From NCBI GenBank assembly GCA_003560355.1, contig PWIP01000067.1, positions 1-11,148 on the forward strand: a stretch of DNA of 11,148 nt, written 5' to 3'. Under the pieces are notes generated by a model, which was not told the DNA's origin, ran no database searches, and was given only the letters and a program-made list of their open reading frames with translations. The DNA comes from Candidatus Dojkabacteria bacterium. GTDB lineage: Bacteria; Patescibacteriota; Dojkabacteria; SC72; T1SED10-24. The position numbers and the translations under genes are program-made. Below are positions 2 to 7,706 of this stretch, in pieces (the stretch's first letter is position 1; every line of letters starts with the position of its first letter).

Positions 2-1831
2 TTTACAAAAAAGGCTTCAGAAGAAATGACAGAAAGAATAGGTAGCATGTTGAAAGAATTGGGTATAAAAGCGGTCTCAAATCCACTTGTGGGAACATTT
101 CATTCAATTAGTGCTTTGATTTTGAGAAAAGATGGAGATAAATTGGGAATTTCAACAAACTATTCAATATATGATTCGGCAGATTCAGAAAAATTAGTAA
201 AGGACGTTATGTTGGAAATGAATATTGATACAAGTCAATTCAAACCAAAAGCGATTTCACAAATGATTAGTAGTGCAAAAAATGAATACATAGGGCCAGA
301 AAATTACAGAATTCAACACTCAGGATTTATTGAAGATATGGTTTCAGAAATATATCCTCAATATCAGCAACATCTAGAAAGTTCAAATGCCTTAGATTTT
401 GGAGATCTTCTTTTTAAAGTAGTCAAACTTTTTGAAGAACATCCAGATGTTTTAGAAAAATATCAAGAACATTTTAAATATATTATGGTTGATGAATATC
501 AGGATACGAATAAAATACAGTATCTTTTTGTTAAATTACTCTCAGGAAAGTACAAAAACATTTGCGTGGTTGGAGATGATGACCAAGGTATTTATGGCTG
601 GCGAGGTGCAGATATTAAAAATATCATTTCATTTGAAAAAGATTTCCCCAATGTAAAAGTTGTAAAACTAGAACAAAACTATCGCTCTGTTCAAAATGTC
701 ATAGATGCAGCAGTTGCAGTTATATGTGGAAATAATCACAGAGTAGACAAAAAACTTTGGACAGATAGGGAGTGTGGTAGCCCTCTAACGGTATATCAAG
801 CAGAGGACGAAAAAGCGGAGGCAGAGTATGTGGTTGATGAAGTTGTAAGTTTGCAAAATCAAGGATATACATTAAATGATATGGCAATACTTTATAGAAC
901 GAATTTCCAGTCTAGAATTTTTGAAGAAGCTTTTTTAAAAAATGGAATACATTACAAATTAGTAGGTGGTTTTAGATTTTATGAAAGAAAAGAAATTAAG
1001 GACATATTGAGTTTTATGAGATTCATTAATAATCCAAAAGATGACCTTAGCCTTCTTAGGATTATCAATGTTCCACCCAGGAAAATGGGACCAACTTCTT
1101 TAGAATCTTTGACTAAGATTTCCAAGGAATTAAAAATGCCTCTAGCTTATGTCTTGTTACTAGGTTTTTGTTTGATAAATAAGGTTGATAAAAAAGATAT
1201 AGGTAGTGAATTAGATGTATCTAGAATTAGTGAATTGAAAAAATACGAAGACATTTTGTTAAAACAAGAGAGGTGTGTAAATATATTCGGAGAAATATAT
1301 TTTGAGTCTTTTGACTTGGATGTACTTGCCGTTATTGAAAATATACTCTCCAAAACGAAATATGTAGATTGGTTGGATGATGGTTCTGAAATAGCTGAGC
1401 AGAAAAAAGAAAATATTAATGAATTAAAAAATTTAGCAAATAGTTATGTTGAAGCTGAAAATCCAAATTCACTAGCTGAATTTCTTGCAGACATTGCTTT
1501 AATAGAGGCAGAACAAGAAAAAATAGATGAAAGTAAAAATACTATTACTCTAATGACTTTACACTCTTCTAAAGGTTTGGAATTCCCTGTTGTTTTTATG
1601 GTTGGTATGGAAGAAGGTTTTTTGCCTCATTCAAGATCATTTACAACGGAAAAAGAGTTGGAAGAAGAAAGGAGGCTTTGTTATGTGGGTATTACTAGAG
1701 CAAGGGAGAAACTTTTTTTAACTTTTGCTGAAAGTCGTACAACAATGCACGGTATTCAAGAAAGAGTACCATCCAGATTCCTTTCTGAAATTCCCCAGGA
1801 AATTTGTGAATATTACAGTTGGAAATGTTAA
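2..1831 (+). CDS. uvrD: UvrD/PcrA/Rep-type superfamily 1 DNA helicase, 5'-truncated by the window edge
   Basis: This is an ATP-driven 3'-5' single-strand DNA translocase/helicase of the UvrD-PcrA-Rep family, which acts in nucleotide excision repair, mismatch repair and removal of blocks from replication forks. The reading frame is open from base 2, and its first residues (FTKKASEEM) match motif Ia, so the Walker A segment and the true start lie outside the window; the Met at 26 is internal. Numbering from that Met: motif Ib GTFHS about 23-27, Walker B DEYQDTN 156-162, motif III GDDDQGIYGWRGAD 183-196, motif IV QNYRS about 217-221, motif V TLHSSKGLEF 511-520, and motif VI with the arginine finger, LCYVGITRAREKL, 551-563. 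The protein stops soon after PSRFLSEIP, so the C-terminal Tudor-like domain of PcrA that binds RNA polymerase is missing. The stop codon overlaps that of the convergent downstream gene. Family assignment is firm; the choice between UvrD, PcrA and Rep is not. Confidence 0.93.
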   Translation, partial: FTKKASEEMTERIGSMLKELGIKAVSNPLVGTFHSISALILRKDGDKLGISTNYSIYDSADSEKLVKDVMLEMNIDTSQFKPKAISQMISSAKNEYIGPENYRIQHSGFIEDMVSEIYPQYQQHLESSNALDFGDLLFKVVKLFEEHPDVLEKYQEHFKYIMVDEYQDTNKIQYLFVKLLSGKYKNICVVGDDDQGIYGWRGADIKNIISFEKDFPNVKVVKLEQNYRSVQNVIDAAVAVICGNNHRVDKKLWTDRECGSPLTVYQAEDEKAEAEYVVDEVVSLQNQGYTLNDMAILYRTNFQSRIFEEAFLKNGIHYKLVGGFRFYERKEIKDILSFMRFINNPKDDLSLLRIINVPPRKMGPTSLESLTKISKELKMPLAYVLLLGFCLINKVDKKDIGSELDVSRISELKKYEDILLKQERCVNIFGEIYFESFDLDVLAVIENILSKTKYVDWLDDGSEIAEQKKENINELKNLANSYVEAENPNSLAEFLADIALIEAEQEKIDESKNTITLMTLHSSKGLEFPVVFMVGMEEGFLPHSRSFTTEKELEEERRLCYVGITRAREKLFLTFAESRTTMHGIQERVPSRFLSEIPQEICEYYSWKC

Positions 1832-2700
1832 TAGGTATTTTGGGAACATGCAGGCCAGTGGTGACTAAGCCCTCCGGCTCTAAGGATATTTAGAGCTGAA
1901 AGAATTTGTTGTTCACCGTCCCAGATATCTTTCCCACCGTAATGTTCAAAAGTATTTCTGTTAAACTGCAAAAGTCCTAAATATCTGTTGATGTTATTTT
2001 TAGCATCGTTACAATGAGATTCGCATCTAATTAAAGACTTTAACGTCTCTCTTTCCCATTCATCTTCTGTAGCTCTATCTACAATTTCAAACCAGTGAGG
2101 GCAATTTCTGCCTCCCATAGCAGATGTTTTTGTACCTAAAGCTATAACTTTATCAATAGGTTCTCTCAAAACTTCCTCCCTGTAAATTCTCTTTTCTATA
2201 AGTTCATTATTTTCATAAATCCCTTCATATGTAATTTCCTTTATCCCCATTAAACCACTTTGTATGACTTTTTCTATACCATAGTCTAATGAAGAATCTT
2301 GTGTTCTTGTAGTTTTAAAAGGTATCTCCTCTCTTGTTGTAATTAATTCCTTTTCAATTAAAACAATCCTTATCAAACTTTTGTCTTTAATTTCGTAATC
2401 TAAAGAAGGAAGAATAATATCGTAATCAGCATAACTAAAGTTATGATTTTGTAAAACCTCTCTAACGTTTTCCTCATATGTAAGTAAATCTATTTTTTCA
2501 TCTGCATATATTACTGTAACTCTCTTTGGTGGAAAAATACGTATGATGTTATTTTCTTCCTCTGGAATAGATTCTAAATTCCAGGAATTTCTATCCTCAT
2601 CAGAATAGGCAAATCCTGTTAAAAAAATTAAAGATGTTAAGCAGATGAAGAAAGTTTTTAAAAAAGATTTTCTCTCCAGAAAAGAGAAAAAATATTTCAT
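1828..2700 (-). CDS. Secreted Rpf-like peptidoglycan hydrolase with DUF348-like and G5 domains
   Basis: This is a predicted exported cell-wall lytic enzyme of the resuscitation-promoting-factor type, 290 aa. Residues 13-33 form a hydrophobic signal peptide ending AYS, a plausible signal peptidase I site. Residues about 60-107 (beginning RVTVIYADEK) look like the beta-grasp DUF348 domain of YabE/RpfB proteins. Residues about 113-190 resemble a G5 domain, which binds wall glycans. Residues about 217-290 match the Rpf lysozyme-like fold: CES at 226-228 with the expected catalytic Glu227, LGLLQFNRNTF at 241-251, YGG at 254-256, the EQQI helix start at 263-266, and a terminal WPAC with Cys285 placed to pair with Cys226. 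Known relatives cleave the glycan strand to allow growth or reactivation. The start is preceded by no Shine-Dalgarno sequence; an extended -10 promoter lies about 65 bp upstream. Architecture is confident; the physiological role is inferred. Confidence 0.87.
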   Translation of the reverse strand: MKYFFSFLERKSFLKTFFICLTSLIFLTGFAYSDEDRNSWNLESIPEEENNIIRIFPPKRVTVIYADEKIDLLTYEENVREVLQNHNFSYADYDIILPSLDYEIKDKSLIRIVLIEKELITTREEIPFKTTRTQDSSLDYGIEKVIQSGLMGIKEITYEGIYENNELIEKRIYREEVLREPIDKVIALGTKTSAMGGRNCPHWFEIVDRATEDEWERETLKSLIRCESHCNDAKNNINRYLGLLQFNRNTFEHYGGKDIWDGEQQILSALNILRAGGLSHHWPACSQNTY

Positions 2701-2765
2701 TGTAGATTATTAAAAGCTTATTCCTACTGAACTTATATCTTGCTTGGTGGTGTAGGATGGGAAAC

Positions 2766-2774
2766 ATTATAGCA
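2766..2774 (-). promoter_or_regulatory. Extended -10 promoter element for the Rpf-like gene
   Basis: Read on the minus strand these bases are TGCTATAAT: a perfect TATAAT hexamer with the TGn extension, which can reduce the need for a -35 box. No good -35 match is seen 17-18 bp upstream (CTGGAC at 2789-2794 is the nearest). The predicted transcription start is near 2759, giving a leader of about 59 nt before the ATG at 2700. Confidence 0.6.
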
Positions 2775-2779
2775 TTTGA

Positions 2780-2808
2780 TTGACTAATGTCCAGTCTACA
2801 AGTATTAT
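2780..2808 (+). promoter_or_regulatory. Sigma70-type promoter for the TPR lipoprotein gene
   Basis: TTGACT (2780-2785) and TATTAT (2803-2808) are separated by exactly 17 bp, a near-consensus housekeeping promoter. Transcription would begin around 2815, about 27 nt before the preferred start codon at 2842. Its -35 box lies between the -10 and the putative -35 of the divergent promoter, so the two promoters are interleaved. Confidence 0.65.
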
Positions 2809-2841
2809 CTTTATATGGTATTAAATTTAGGTAAAATAGTT

Positions 2842-4233
2842 ATGAAATCAAAAATTCTCTTGTATATATTTGTTTTTCTTTTTTCTGTATTTTTTCTTAC
2901 AGGTTGTACAAGCAATGAAAACAAGAATATTTCAAATGATTTAACACAGGAAGGTTTGGAACTTTATGAAGAGAGGTATTACAAAAAGGCTATGGATAAA
3001 TTTATTGAAGCTTTGGAAAAATATCCTAGTAATTTTGAAGCATATGTTGGTTTGGCAGATGTTCTTTTAGACAAGGGTTTTCTTGAAGAGGCTGAAGAAT
3101 TGGCAAGTGAAGCTTCTATACGAGTAAGCAAGACTGAATCTGCAGAAATATATTCAATGGTTGGAAGTAAATATTATGATATTGAAGAGTATGAAAAGGC
3201 CAAAGAAATGTTTGAGAGTGCAATAAATTCTGATAGTGGCTATGAAGGTGGGCGAATAGGTTTGGCTCAGACAAATATACAAGAAGGTGATATCAATGAA
3301 GCTCGTAGAGCATTAGGCAGTAGAGGGGAAAGTGACGATTTCTTACTACTGTATTCTTTTTTAACTCTTGATGATTGGGATGAAGGTTTTAAAAAAATTC
3401 GTAAAATTCAAGACAGTGAATTAAAAAATCAAATGACAAGAATATATGAAATAGATGATGAAGATGCTTTGTACAAAAATACTTCTCTAGCGGGAGAGTA
3501 TATTAATGCAGGCTATCCTTTTTTGGCGATTGAACTTTTAAATAAACAGGATGAGGAAATAGAACAATATCCAGAAGGACAGTATTTTTTAGGGAAGGCG
3601 TATCTTGATTATGGTAATTATAATAGTGCGATAGAGAAATTAAATGCTGCTCTAATGTTAGATATAGATGAAAAAAATGTATATATTAATCTTGCTAGAG
3701 CTTACCTATTCAACAATGATATGGATAGAGCATTAAATGCTTATGAAACAGATATCTCTCCAACAGATTTAAAATCTCTTGAAGAGTACGTAGACGTATT
3801 ACTTGCAAATGATATGAGGAATAAAGCTCAGACAACTTTAATGAGTCTTTTAGCAGAAGAGGACTCTTTTGCTTTGAATATAATGTTAGTAAGAGTGTAT
3901 TATGAGTATAAGGAGTTAGAAAAAATGAGTGAAATTCTTGAAAAACTTGATACTAAAACCAATCTTACTCAATCAGAAACGAAAGAATTAAAAAGATATA
4001 AAATTCTATATTCTCTTGAAGACATAGAAAACATTGGAGAACTTGATAGTTTAATAGAAAGATATTCTGTTTTTGATAGATACAATCCAGAACTGTATTT
4101 ATTTAGAGGTATGTTATTAAAAAATAAAAACGAAGTTTTGAAAGCGCAAGAAGCTCTTGAGAGAGCGATTGAATTAGACTTAAAAGGTGATGTGGCTGAA
4201 CAGGCTGAAGAATTGTTGGCTAGTATGAATTAA
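2842..4233 (+). CDS. TPR-repeat lipoprotein
   Basis: This is a predicted membrane-anchored lipoprotein of 463 aa that probably works as a protein-protein interaction scaffold on the outer face of the membrane. The start at 2842 is preferred over the in-frame ATG at 2815: it gives a classic lipoprotein signal (MKSK, hydrophobic stretch, lipobox LTGC with Cys22), while the ATG at 2815 coincides with the predicted transcription start. After Cys22 comes a short polar linker, then helical repeats with TPR-like spacing: about 35-65 (YYKKAMDKFIEAL), 66-98, 101-135 (YEKAKEMFESAI), 136-165, 247-280 (YLDYGNYNSAIEKLNAAL), 281-311 and 415-450 (AQEALERAIEL). The middle and the 360-400 stretch are more degenerate. 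There is no catalytic motif. Its divergent neighbour is a wall hydrolase and the next gene is fusA, so an envelope role fits the first neighbour only. A weak AGG (2829-2831) is the only ribosome-binding hint. Confidence 0.85.
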   Translation: MKSKILLYIFVFLFSVFFLTGCTSNENKNISNDLTQEGLELYEERYYKKAMDKFIEALEKYPSNFEAYVGLADVLLDKGFLEEAEELASEASIRVSKTESAEIYSMVGSKYYDIEEYEKAKEMFESAINSDSGYEGGRIGLAQTNIQEGDINEARRALGSRGESDDFLLLYSFLTLDDWDEGFKKIRKIQDSELKNQMTRIYEIDDEDALYKNTSLAGEYINAGYPFLAIELLNKQDEEIEQYPEGQYFLGKAYLDYGNYNSAIEKLNAALMLDIDEKNVYINLARAYLFNNDMDRALNAYETDISPTDLKSLEEYVDVLLANDMRNKAQTTLMSLLAEEDSFALNIMLVRVYYEYKELEKMSEILEKLDTKTNLTQSETKELKRYKILYSLEDIENIGELDSLIERYSVFDRYNPELYLFRGMLLKNKNEVLKAQEALERAIELDLKGDVAEQAEELLASMN

Positions 4234-4313: not shown

Positions 4314-6410
4314 ATGGCAACAATTAGTTATAACGTAAAGTTTGATTTTGATAAAATACGCAATATTGGTATTATCGCACACATTGATGCAGGTAAAACA
4401 ACAACCACAGAGAGACTTCTTTATTTCACGGGACAAAAACATAAAATAGGTGAAGTTCATGAAGGGGAATCAACTACAGACTTCATGGATCAAGAAAAAG
4501 AAAGAGGTATTACGATAATGTCTGCAGCCGTTACTTGTTTTTGGAAATACAGTGGTGAGGATTACAGAATTAATATTATTGATACTCCAGGACATGTTGA
4601 CTTTACTGCAGAGGTAGAAAGATCGTTGAGGGTTTTGGATGGGGCAGCGGTAATCTTTGATGGAAAAATGGGAGTTGAACCACAATCTGAAACCGTTTGG
4701 AGACAAGCTACAAAGTACAATGTTCCAAGAATATGTTTTGCAAACAAACTAAACCTTTTAGGTGGTGATTTTAAAATGACTCTAGAATCTATTAAAGAAA
4801 GGCTTACTCCGAATGCCGTAGCTCTTTGGTTACCTATTGGCCGGGAGACAGCTCTTAGGGGTTTTGTAGATTTACTTAAAGAAAAAGCATATACATATAA
4901 ATCTGTTGAAGAGAAGGAATTAAAAGAGGAAGAAGTCCCGGAGGATATGAAAGCGGATGTTGCTAAGTATAGAGAAGAATTAATAGAAAAGATTGCTGAA
5001 CAAGACGATGAATTGATGACCAAATATCTTGATGGAGAGGAATTAACATACGATGAAATGCTTCAAGGATTGAGAAAAGGTACCCTCTCTGGAGGTTTAT
5101 TCCCTGTTATGTGCGGAGATTCTAGGTCTCCAGTAGTTGTTAAATTCTTGGATATGGTTATCCAATGTCTTCCTTCTCCTGTAGATGTAAATGCTGTTGA
5201 AGGTATTGATCCTAAAACTGAGGAAACTATTGTTAGGAAAACAAATGAAGAAGACCCATTCGCGGCATTAGTTTTTAAGATAGTTAATGATCCACATATT
5301 GGTAATTTGTCATACATTAGAATATATTCTGGTCAATTGAAGGCTGGCTCTTATGTTTACAATTCAACAAAGAAAATTAAGGAACGAGTTGGAAGGTTGC
5401 TACTTATGCATGCTAATGATAGGGAGGAAGCAGATTCTTTGAGAGCTGGTGATATAGGTGCAGTTGTTGGACTTAAGGATTCAGTGACGGGAGATACTTT
5501 GTGTGATCAAAGTGATCCAGTTATATTAGAACAGATACAATTTTCTGAACCAGTAGTTTCTCAAGCGGTAGAGCCTGTAACAAAATCAGATGAAGAAAAA
5601 CTAAGCCTTGCTCTTGCTCGCCTTATGAAAGAGGATCCAACTTTTAAGGTTGAGTCTAATATTGAAACTGGACAAACAGTTATTTCAGGTATGGGTGAAT
5701 TACATTTGGAAATTTTAATAGATAGGCTTAAAAGAGAATTCAAAGTAGAAGCAAATGTTGGCGTACCTCAGGTGGCATACAAAGAAACCATTAAATTGGA
5801 AGTAGAATCGGAAGGACGTTATGTTAAGCAATCTGGTGGTAGAGGACAGTATGGGCACTGTTATTTACGTCTTATCCCAAATGAAAGAGGAGAGGGTTTT
5901 GAATTCATAAACTCTATTAAAGGTGGGGCTATACCACGCGAATTTATTCCTGCTATTGAAAAAGGAGTGCAAGAAGCTTTAATGTCAGGTGTTGTAGCGG
6001 GATATCCTGTAATTGACTTAAAAGTTGAAGTTTATGATGGCTCATTTCATGAAGTAGACTCCTCAGAAGCTGCATTTAAGGTTGCAGGTTCTATGGCTTT
6101 CAAAGAAGGTTGTAGAAGAGCAAACCCTGTACTTCTAGAACCTATTATGTCTGTGGAGGTTATTGCACCAGAAAAGTTTGTTGGTGATGTTACAGGATCG
6201 CTTAGTAGTAAGAGAGGGATAATTAAAAAGACTGAAACAAGGGGAGACCTTCACGTAATATCGGCAGATGCACCATTGGCAGAATTGTTTGGCTATACGA
6301 CACAATTGAGATCAATTACTAGTGGAAGAGGTAATGCAACTATGGAAATGTCGCACTTTGCTGAGGTTCCAAAAAATGTAGTGGAGGAAATTGTTGCAAA
6401 AAAGTCTTAA
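4314..6410 (+). CDS. fusA: Elongation factor G with altered guanine-recognition motifs
   Basis: EF-G, the translocase that moves tRNA and mRNA through the ribosome; 698 aa, normal length. The ATG at 4314 (MATISYN) is preferred over an in-frame TTG at 4302. All five domains are recognisable. G1 [13 protein letters not shown]2 ERGITI and G3 DTPGH are canonical, and domain IV keeps SGGRGQYGH and the tip HEVDSSE. The base-recognition motifs are not canonical. G4 is N144-K-L-N147, where NKMD is expected (Asp to Asn; bases 4743-4754). G5 is G268-D-S-R-S, where GSAFK is expected (Ser to Asp, Ala to Ser, loop one residue shorter; bases 5115-5129). Flanks align without frameshift on both sides (VPRICFA before G4, LPSPVDV after G5), so these are real substitutions. 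The context before tuf and S10 argues for the main housekeeping EF-G, not a paralogue. Only a weak GGA precedes the start. Identity is certain; altered nucleotide preference is inferred. Confidence 0.97.
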
Positions 6411-6418
6411 AAAGACTT
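6402..6418 (+). other. Hairpin spanning the fusA stop codon
   Basis: AAGTCTT (6402-6408) and AAGACTT (6412-6418) form a perfect 7-bp stem around a 3-nt AAA loop. The fusA TAA (6408-6410) lies in the stem and loop. No U-tract follows on the plus strand, so this is not a convincing terminator in the gene direction; it may protect a 3' end or mark a processing site. Confidence 0.45.
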
Positions 6419-6451
6419 GAAACAAAAGAAAATTTTTGATAACATACCTCC

Positions 6452-6504
6452 AGTTTATTTCCTATTGGAAAAATGATAAAGAATAATGTAAAATAAACTT
6501 TATC
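6452..6504 (+). repeat. Overlapping inverted repeats in the fusA-tuf spacer
   Basis: AGTTTATTT (6452-6460) is the exact inverse complement of AAATAAACT (6491-6499). GATAAAG (6475-6481) is the inverse complement of CTTTATC (6498-6504). A small TTTCC/GGAAA hairpin (6458-6471) lies inside. The right arms overlap by 2 nt, so the two pairings compete. The set covers the predicted tuf -10 and could be an operator or alternative leader folds; in AT-rich DNA, chance is also possible. Confidence 0.35.
6465..6494 (+). promoter_or_regulatory. tuf: Possible promoter for tuf
   Basis: TTGGAA (6465-6470) and TAAAAT (6489-6494) with an 18-bp spacer, preceded by TG directly next to the -10. It would start transcription near 6501, about 36 nt before the tuf ATG, and would give tuf extra expression independent of fusA. 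Both boxes are imperfect and the spacer is AT-rich, so support is moderate to low. Confidence 0.4.
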
Positions 6505-6536
6505 TTTTAATAATTAAATTTTTTATATTTTTTAAA

Positions 6537-7706
6537 ATGGCAGACAAATTTGAAAGAACAAAGCCTCATATAAATATTGGTACCCTTGGTCATATTGATC
6601 ACGGAAAAACCACCCTTATTAGAGGTGTTTTGAGTGTTTTCGCAAGTGATCCAGCGAAAATGATTGACAAACTTGACAAAGACCCTATGTCAAGGCAAAA
6701 GAGTATTACCATTTCGGTAGCTCATGTTGAATTTGAGACAGAAAATAGGCATTATGCTTTGGTGGACTGTCCTGGGCATAAAGACTACATCAAAAATATG
6801 ATTACTGGTGCTGCTCAAATGGACGGTGCAGTTTTGGTCGTTTCATCTGCGGATGGTGCTATGCCTCAGACAAGAGAACATATTCTTTTGGCAAAGCAGG
6901 TTGGTGTCCCAAGTATTGTTGTTTACATCAATACTTTTGGTGAAACTGACAATGAAATTCTTGAACTAATTAAATCTGATGTTCAGGAACTTTTGGATAA
7001 GTATGGTTATGATAAAGACAGCCCTATAATCGTAGGAGATGCTTTGAAAGCTGAAAAAGGAGAAGAAGAGGGTTTGGAATCTGTGAAAGAATTGATGAAA
7101 GCAGTAGATGAATATATTCCAGAACCTGAAAGACCAATAGATCAAGACTTTTTAATGCCAATTGAGGATGTTTTTTCAATTGAGGGAAGAGGTACTGTTG
7201 TAACAGGTAGAATTGAAAGAGGGAAAGTTAAAGTTGGCGAAGAGGTAGATGTTTTGGGTATGGGAAGGAAAGATCAGGTCACTGCTGTAACAGGTGTTGA
7301 AATGTTCAACAAATCCTTGGATGAGGGTCTTGCTGGAGATAATGTAGGTATTCTTTTAAGAGGATTTAAGAGAGAAGATGTTGAAAGAGGACAGGTTTTG
7401 GCAAAGAAAGGTAGCACAAAAACTCACACAGAATTTACAGCAGAAGTATATGTTTTGAGTAAAGAAGAAGGTGGTAGACATACTCCATTCGTTAGTGGTT
7501 ACAAACCACAGTTCTATATTCGTACAGCTGATGTTACTGGAGAGGTTCAACTAAAAGAAGGTGTTGAAATGGTTATGCCTGGAGATAACACAGAGGTGAC
7601 CATTAAATTACTAGCTCCAGTTGCAATTGAAAAAGGATTGAATTTTGCAATTCGAGAAGGAGGTCAAACCGTAGGTAAGGGAGTAATCACAGAGATTATT
7701 AAGTAA
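6537..7706 (+). CDS. tuf: Elongation factor Tu with degenerate G4/G5 motifs and altered switch I
   Basis: EF-Tu, which carries aminoacyl-tRNA to the ribosomal A site; 389 aa, slightly shorter than the usual 394 or so. G1 GHIDHGKT (18-25) and G3 DCPGH (77-81, with catalytic His81) are intact; domains 2 and 3 look normal ([19 protein letters not shown]-like KPQFY, AIREGG). Three parts of the G domain deviate. Switch I is about three residues shorter and reads RQKSITI where KARGITI is expected, keeping the Mg-binding Thr58. G4 reads N132-T-F-G135 where NKCD is expected, losing both the Lys and the guanine-specifying Asp (bases 6930-6941), with a one-residue deletion just after. G5 reads G167-D-A-L-K171 where GSALK is expected (bases 7035-7049). 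The residue after DCPGH is Lys, not the usual bacterial Ala. Sequence aligns in frame throughout, so a read error is unlikely. Placement between fusA and rpsJ marks it as the main EF-Tu. Confidence 0.97.

What the first reader, a model, noticed from the sequence alone, without database searches (positions are those of the whole stretch)
4314..7706. Coordinated base-pocket rewiring in both elongation factors: a possible non-GTP elongation cycle
EF-G and EF-Tu are distant paralogues, yet both lose the G4 Asp and both gain Asp in the G5 position while keeping the phosphate-binding motifs. Random decay would not be expected to hit the same two positions in both and spare the rest. The exact G4 solutions differ (NKLN against NTFG), which argues for parallel adaptation to a shared change such as use of ATP or another purine triphosphate, or unusual GTP levels. 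I know of no described bacterium that runs elongation this way, but cannot search.
Basis: inference. Interest (0 to 1): 0.95.

Follow-up and report, generated by a model that had tools for sequence, protein, structure and literature searches.

The report
Elongation factors with rewired guanine pockets
In a little-known group of tiny bacteria the two proteins that drive protein synthesis have lost the amino acid that normally recognises the fuel GTP; in one of them it seems to have moved to a neighbouring loop, in the other it eroded away, and the two changes look independent rather than one switch to a new fuel.

Summary
The window is a Ca. Dojkabacteria (Patescibacteria) contig; its EF-G reads NKLN (G4) and CGDS (G5), its EF-Tu NTFG and GDAL. 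Both genes are intact and under strong purifying selection; no canonical extra copy was seen.

The "coordinated switch" reading fails. EF-G: of 162 Patescibacteria EF-Gs with both motifs read, 81 NKxD all carry G5 Ser/Thr/Ala, while the 81 without the Asp (79 NKxN, 2 NKxA) carry G5 Asp (80) or Asn (1). The G4 and G5 changes arose together about six times, several in lineages whose EF-Tu is canonical. That looks like the guanine-reading Asp moving from G4 to G5, keeping GTP.

EF-Tu: a separate, single-origin change seen only in Dojkabacteria (67 of 78; 0 of 40 read elsewhere): NKxD became NxFD, then the Asp was lost several times to G, P, E, K, Q or V, often with no acid left at either site. 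That suggests relaxed base recognition. Of 108 genomes, 31 have only EF-G altered and 12 only EF-Tu.

IF2, LepA, TypA and Obg keep [N/T]KxD in the few genomes checked. Which nucleotide EF-Tu uses is untested; ATP/GTP promiscuity is the boldest reading not excluded. My searches listed no paper describing either change.

The parts
4314..6410 (+). EF-G gene (698 aa)
   Evidence: AlphaFold model matches EF-G structures
4377..4400 (+). EF-G G1 AHIDAGKT, unchanged
4743..4754 (+). EF-G G4 NKLN (canonical NKxD)
5112..5123 (+). EF-G G5 CGDS, with a one-residue deletion relative to canonical GSALK loops
6537..7706 (+). EF-Tu gene (389 aa)
   Evidence: AlphaFold model matches GTP-form EF-Tu
6588..6611 (+). 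EF-Tu G1 GHIDHGKT, unchanged
6699..6713 (+). EF-Tu switch I KSITI in place of RGITI
6780..6782 (+). Lys82 right after the catalytic-His position (Ala in 98% of 51 canonical rows)
6930..6941 (+). EF-Tu G4 NTFG (canonical NKxD); the Phe is in 67 of 67 altered rows
7035..7046 (+). EF-Tu G5 GDAL (canonical GSAL)

Best explanation
Two independent remodellings of the guanine pocket sit side by side. (1) EF-G: the acidic residue that reads guanine N1/N2 has moved from G4 (Asp to Asn) to the first residue of a mostly shortened G5 loop (Ser/Thr/Ala to Asp). The new Asp is inferred to hold the G4 Asn amide and/or accept the guanine N2/N1 hydrogens, so EF-G stays a GTPase. This swap arose about six times in the Patescibacteria sampled. 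(2) EF-Tu: in one Dojkabacteria lineage the residue after the G4 Lys became Phe and the Lys was often lost (NxFD); after that the Asp became dispensable and was lost several times, with G5 drifting between Ser, Asn and Asp. The inference is that base recognition is relaxed: the protein still runs on GTP in the cell but with lower guanine selectivity. Shown: sequences, coupling, number of origins, selection. Inferred: hydrogen bonds, nucleotide, affinity.
For: EF-G coupling in 162 of 162, plus the 120 listed database EF-Gs nearest the window (window included; all NKxN with GD) and the 120 listed nearest genome G096 (all NKIN/GGDG). G4 and G5 each change 6 times on the masked tree and agree in 5 of 5 starred independent pairs (6 pairs on all branches). 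EF-Tu NxF is one change, NxFD against NxF[not D] several more. 21 of 51 NxF[not D] EF-Tus have no acid at the G4 Asp position or at the first G5 residue. GTP-type G4 kept in LepA (NKVD) and IF2 (TKTD) of the same genome, in IF2, TypA and Obg of G013, in IF2 and TypA of G018 and in Obg of G041 (names by NCBIfam). dN/dS about 0.02 to the nearest relative. Precedent: in V. cholerae FeoB a G5 residue contacts guanine N1 or the G4 Asp, and that position is variable in promiscuous FeoBs (PMC11406355, abstract and section 7 read; equating it with the EF first G5 residue is my inference); 20.5% of 298 guanine-binding structures lack NKxD and use another D/E (PMC11594714, passages).
Against: Asp-to-Asn alone switches EF-Tu, Ras and FtsY to xanthine nucleotides (PMC3466195, passage), so GTP retention in EF-G rests on the G5 Asp. 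Five starred independent pairs give p 0.0625 only. One altered EF-G has Asn, not Asp, in G5 (G041), and two have NKxA. The EF-G tree is a FastTree tree. Only a handful of other GTPases were read.
Confidence: 0.6

Rival explanations
1. Coordinated switch of both elongation factors to ATP or another NTP.
For: Both altered in 48 of 108 genomes, including the window; precedents for GTP-to-ATP change through G4 and G5 in SpoIVA (PMC7952092, passages) and an altered G4 NxxE in YchF (PMC8779481, passage).
Against: 31 genomes have only EF-G and 12 only EF-Tu altered; independent pairs show no clear association; the EF-Tu site varies instead of settling on a new motif.
Confidence: 0.07
2. EF-Tu alone has become NTP-promiscuous (GTP and ATP), EF-G remains GTP-specific.
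For: No acid left at the G4 Asp position or at the first G5 residue in 21 of 51 rows; G5 Asn in 14 of 51, the residue of promiscuous V. cholerae FeoB; guanylate kinase over cut-off in only 22 of 96 and NDK in 61 of 96 genomes.
Against: Guanylate kinase is also missing from 8 of 12 class genomes in the families with canonical EF-Tu and 8 of 11 genomes of other classes, against 58 of 73 in the altered families; EF-Ts kept in 92 of 96; no binding data.
Confidence: 0.2
3. The change tunes nucleotide affinity or exchange rate, not specificity: weaker GDP binding speeds turnover.
For: EF-Tu also changed in switch I (KSITI) and next to the catalytic His; loss of Lys and Asp should weaken nucleotide binding (general knowledge).
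Against: EF-Ts is retained in 92 of 96 genomes, so exchange still seems to need a factor.
Confidence: 0.25
4. EF-G uses xanthosine triphosphate, as D-to-N mutants do.
For: NKxN is the classical xanthine-switch substitution (PMC3466195, passage).
Against: XTP is not a normal pool metabolite (general knowledge); D-to-N was never seen without a G5 change in 162 EF-Gs, unlike the laboratory mutants.
Confidence: 0.03
5. Pseudogene decay, contamination or assembly error.
For: The window genome is a fragmented MAG (93 contigs, 68% complete).
Against: Clade-wide, also in two records titled complete chromosomes, dN/dS about 0.02.
Confidence: 0.01

Closest known systems
Bacterial EF-G (TIGR00484; T. thermophilus EF-G 1efg/1dar)
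   Same: Whole sequence, fold, G1 and G3, locus beside EF-Tu
   Different: G4 NKxN, G5 GD with a one-residue deletion; the solved EF-G aligned has NKMD and GSAL
Bacterial EF-Tu (TIGR00485; T. aquaticus 1eft)
   Same: Whole sequence, GTP-form fold, G1, G3
   Different: No G4 Lys or Asp, Phe at the third position, KSITI switch I, Lys after the catalytic-His position
Xanthine-switched D-to-N GTPase mutants (EF-Tu, Ras, FtsY; named in PMC3466195, passage)
   Same: G4 Asp to Asn, as in EF-G here
   Different: Natural, and paired with a G5 change in all 79 NKxN EF-Gs read
Promiscuous FeoB (V. cholerae NFeoB, PMC11406355)
   Same: Variable G5 residue near the base, Asn in V. cholerae as in 14 of 51 altered EF-Tus
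   Different: V. cholerae FeoB keeps its G4 Asp (Asp122); altered EF-Tus lose it
SpoIVA (PMC7952092) and YchF/Ola1 (PMC8779481)
   Same: TRAFAC proteins with altered G4 and different nucleotide preference
   Different: SpoIVA acid is at the third G5 residue (SxE), YchF has NxxE in most species; neither is an elongation factor

Membership tests
EF-G | TIGR00484 equivalog score over cut-off | tested here: met
   1023.2 vs 659.4 bits
EF-G | EF-G fold over its full length | tested here: met
EF-G | Canonical G4 NKxD and G5 SA | tested here: not met
   NKLN/CGDS; it is an EF-G by the other features, as a variant
EF-Tu | TIGR00485 equivalog score over cut-off | tested here: met
   606.4 vs 522.4 bits
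EF-Tu | EF-Tu fold | tested here: met
   TM about 0.9 to 1eft and 1exm
EF-Tu | Canonical G4 NKxD and G5 SAL | tested here: not met
   NTFG/GDAL
EF-Tu | GTP as the nucleotide | not testable with these tools
   needs protein
ATP-type TRAFAC proteins (SpoIVA, YchF) | G4 altered | tested here: met
ATP-type TRAFAC proteins (SpoIVA, YchF) | G5 SxE (SpoIVA) or G4 NxxE (YchF) | tested here: not met
   Window: acid in the first G5 residue, no SxE, no NxxE; 5 of 51 NxF[not D] EF-Tus of relatives are NxFE
ATP-type TRAFAC proteins (SpoIVA, YchF) | ATP preference | not testable with these tools
   needs protein
Xanthine-specific GTPase mutants | G4 Asp to Asn with the rest of the pocket kept | tested here: not met
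   G5 changes with it in 79 of 79 NKxN EF-Gs

The most novel reading that the evidence does not exclude
Dojkabacteria run EF-Tu as a nucleotide-promiscuous elongation factor that can use ATP as well as GTP, next to an EF-G that keeps GTP through a relocated Asp: a mixed-fuel elongation cycle in cells that mostly lack a recognisable guanylate kinase.
Probability: 0.2. Interest if true: 0.92.

Novelty: new variant of a known kind. Interest (0 to 1): 0.72.

Why it matters
The G4 Asp is treated as the fingerprint of GTP specificity, and EF-Tu and EF-G are among the most conserved GTPases. A phylum in which EF-G repeatedly trades that Asp between two loops, and a class in which EF-Tu dispenses with it, give natural experiments on how guanine is read and on whether translation needs strict GTP specificity. 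The proteins should be easy to express and test.

Tried and rejected
EF-Ts loss as partner of a weakened EF-Tu pocket: rejected, EF-Ts found in 92 of 96 genomes. Guanylate kinase loss as the driver: PF00625 over cut-off in 22 of 96; missing in 58 of 73 class genomes of families with altered EF-Tu, 8 of 12 of families with canonical EF-Tu (f9, f12, f16) and 8 of 11 of other classes, so it does not single out the altered ones (several hits are weak and may not be the enzyme). One paper passage says Microgenomatia lack it (PMC9166423). Canonical extra copies: none among the matches listed (both lists were cut); the second EF-Tu of G037 is also altered (L114). A first motif count by loose regular expression on 120 EF-Gs gave apparent exceptions; proper alignment showed 120 of 120 GGDG. 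Docking: not possible, no model coordinates lie in the Python box.

Literature, listings only unless said: 2 papers; 46, 20 listed; 5; 11, 10 listed; 99, 12 listed; 0; 5; 2; 12, 8 listed; no title or abstract shown describes these motif changes; the library holds open-licence papers only. Passages by term: PMC11594714, PMC12641178, PMC7952092, PMC3150367, PMC3466195, PMC5624781, PMC8779481, PMC9166423, PMC8321541, PMC10768705. PMC11406355: outline with abstract, and section 7. Numbering of E. coli EF-Tu, Ras geometry and 'catalytic His' are recalled.

Sampling limits. EF-G: G4 read in 164 genomes (75 of 85 in the class, 89 outside), G4 plus G5 in 162. Class genomes without a G4 reading: G025, G027, G032, G066 (not fetched), G029, G036, G039, G064 (cut or split), G078, G083 (no usable EF-G). 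Of the phylum sample of 116 genomes 10 had no match at 1e-100, and eight EF-Gs split or cut short were not fetched (G098, G118, G124, G126, G142, G154, G176, G189). EF-Tu: 118 genomes, 78 of 85 in the class; outside it 40, of which 30 were picked (26 with altered EF-G, 4 with canonical), so these are no frequencies.

Full report
What is in the window. The contig (G000:C21, 11148 bases; genome 487 kb, 93 contigs, 68% complete) carries EF-G and EF-Tu, then ribosomal proteins S10, L3, L4, L23, L2, S19 and L22 (L23 below the cut-offs of its models). Named relatives are Ca. Dojkabacteria / WS6. The 12 ORFs whose stops were printed end in TAA or TAG.

EF-G has NKLN and CGDS, EF-Tu NTFG and GDAL, with G1 and G3 intact. 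Thirty of 30 EF-Tu loci (L005-L034) and 30 of 30 EF-G loci (L035-L064), the window's own and 29 relatives each, share the losses; so do the 120 listed database EF-Tus nearest the window (all N-x-F-G). dN/dS to G001 is 0.024 and 0.019, to G003 0.040 and 0.107. EF-Tu has other changes: RGITI reads KSITI in the window (the Lys is in 100% of NxFD and 90% of NxF[not D] rows, the Ser in 38% and 76%), and Ala after the catalytic-His position is Lys or Arg in most altered rows.

EF-G across Patescibacteria. G4 and G5 were read in 162 EF-Gs: 79 NKxN (78 with G5 Asp, one with Asn; 74 of the 79 also show a one-residue gap in the G5 loop), 2 NKxA (both G5 Asp), 81 NKxD (58 Ser, 14 Thr, 9 Ala). There is no uncoupled case. 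A FastTree tree with the motif columns masked needs 6 changes of G4 and 6 of G5; on independent pairs the two go together in 5 of 5 starred pairs, 6 pairs on all branches (sign test p 0.0625, the floor for five). Two further lists of 120 database EF-Gs, nearest the window and nearest genome G096, are 120 of 120 NKxN with G5 Asp; both are capped best-hit lists, so they add depth rather than independent origins. Source names in the second include CPR3, CPR2, Microgenomates, Howlettbacteria and Berkelbacteria.

EF-Tu. Of 118 EF-Tus, 51 are NKxD (all with G5 Ser), 16 NxFD, 51 NxF with another residue (36 Gly, 5 Pro, 5 Glu, 3 Lys, 1 Val, 1 Gln). The altered ones are 67 of 78 in the class and 0 of 40 outside it. 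On a tree with motif columns masked NxF is one change; the three states need 6 changes there, and Asp loss needs 4 on the joint tree. G5 is Asp in 25 of the 51, Asn in 14, Ser in 12; 21 of 51 have no acid at the Asp position or at the first G5 residue, and 8 of these none at the residue after the Asp position either.

The two are not coordinated. In 108 genomes on a joint tree: both altered 48, EF-G only 31, EF-Tu only 12, neither 17; independent pairs show no clear association. Within the altered-EF-Tu clade of the class, Asp loss and altered EF-G do occur together more often than not (44 both, 8 neither, 6 and 4 mixed), but most of that is one large clade. EF-Tu-only genomes are families f7, f11, f14 and f17; EF-G-only genomes are f12 (NKxA) and other classes. 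The EF-Tu sample outside the class was picked mainly for altered EF-G, so the 31 is no frequency; it does show that the combination is common.

Context. In the same genome LepA is NKVD and IF2 TKTD with SAK; in G013 IF2 is NKTD, TypA NKID, Obg TKAD; in G018 IF2 NKID and TypA NKID; in G041 Obg TKTD (names, TypA and Obg just under their cut-offs). EF-Ts is present in 92 of 96. Guanylate kinase is over cut-off in 22 of 96, NDK in 61 of 96, neither found in the window's incomplete genome. The guanylate kinase gap does not single out the altered genomes. guaA and guaB were not searched.

Mechanism. In V. cholerae FeoB, Thr at G5 position 150 hydrogen-bonds guanine N1, and Asn there engages the G4 Asp (PMC11406355, section 7). 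If that position corresponds to the first G5 residue here (my inference), an Asp there can plausibly take over guanine reading from a G4 Asn. That would explain why EF-G changes both together and why the lone D-to-N (a xanthine switch in EF-Tu, Ras and FtsY; PMC3466195, passage) was not seen. For EF-Tu the free variation of the lost Asp argues for relaxed recognition rather than a new fixed specificity. Both steps are inference; no nucleotide was tested.

Models. AlphaFold2 gives EF-Tu at pLDDT 85.9, closest to GTP-form EF-Tu, and EF-G at 83.2, matching EF-G structures. They show the fold, not the ligand.

Novelty. The listings of my literature searches show neither the EF-G swap nor the EF-Tu erosion; the library lacks most subscription journals. 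I file it as a new variant of known families.

Noticed in passing
G000-G095: No Ffh over the TIGR00959 cut-off in 96 genomes (25 have weak matches of at most 22.6 bits), and no SRP54 domain (PF00448) in 5 genomes tested: the SRP GTPases seem to be missing from these Patescibacteria.
   Followed up: partly
G000-G095: Guanylate kinase domain over cut-off in 22 of 96 and NDK in 61 of 96 genomes, missing even from some near-complete ones: GTP supply in these cells is unclear.
   Followed up: partly
L191-L194 (G047, G053, family f12): Another EF-G solution: NKLA in G4 with CGDAL in G5, no deletion, with canonical EF-Tu.
   Followed up: partly
window 6699-6713 and 6780-6782: EF-Tu switch I KSITI for RGITI and Lys after the catalytic-His position, common in the altered EF-Tu clade; GTPase activation may be changed as well.
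   Followed up: partly
L018 / L099 (G023) and L262 (G040): EF-Tu reading frames of two relatives are listed with in-frame TAG codons (1 and 2); sequencing error or something else, not examined.
   Followed up: no
window 26-4233: Upstream of EF-G: a PcrA/UvrD-type helicase cut by the contig start, a minus-strand protein with a weak resuscitation-factor-like match, and a TPR protein that looks like a lipoprotein.
   Followed up: no
G037 (L019, L114): Two EF-Tu genes in one MAG, both altered but with different G4 (NKFGEA, NKFPGA); possibly mixed bins.
   Followed up: no
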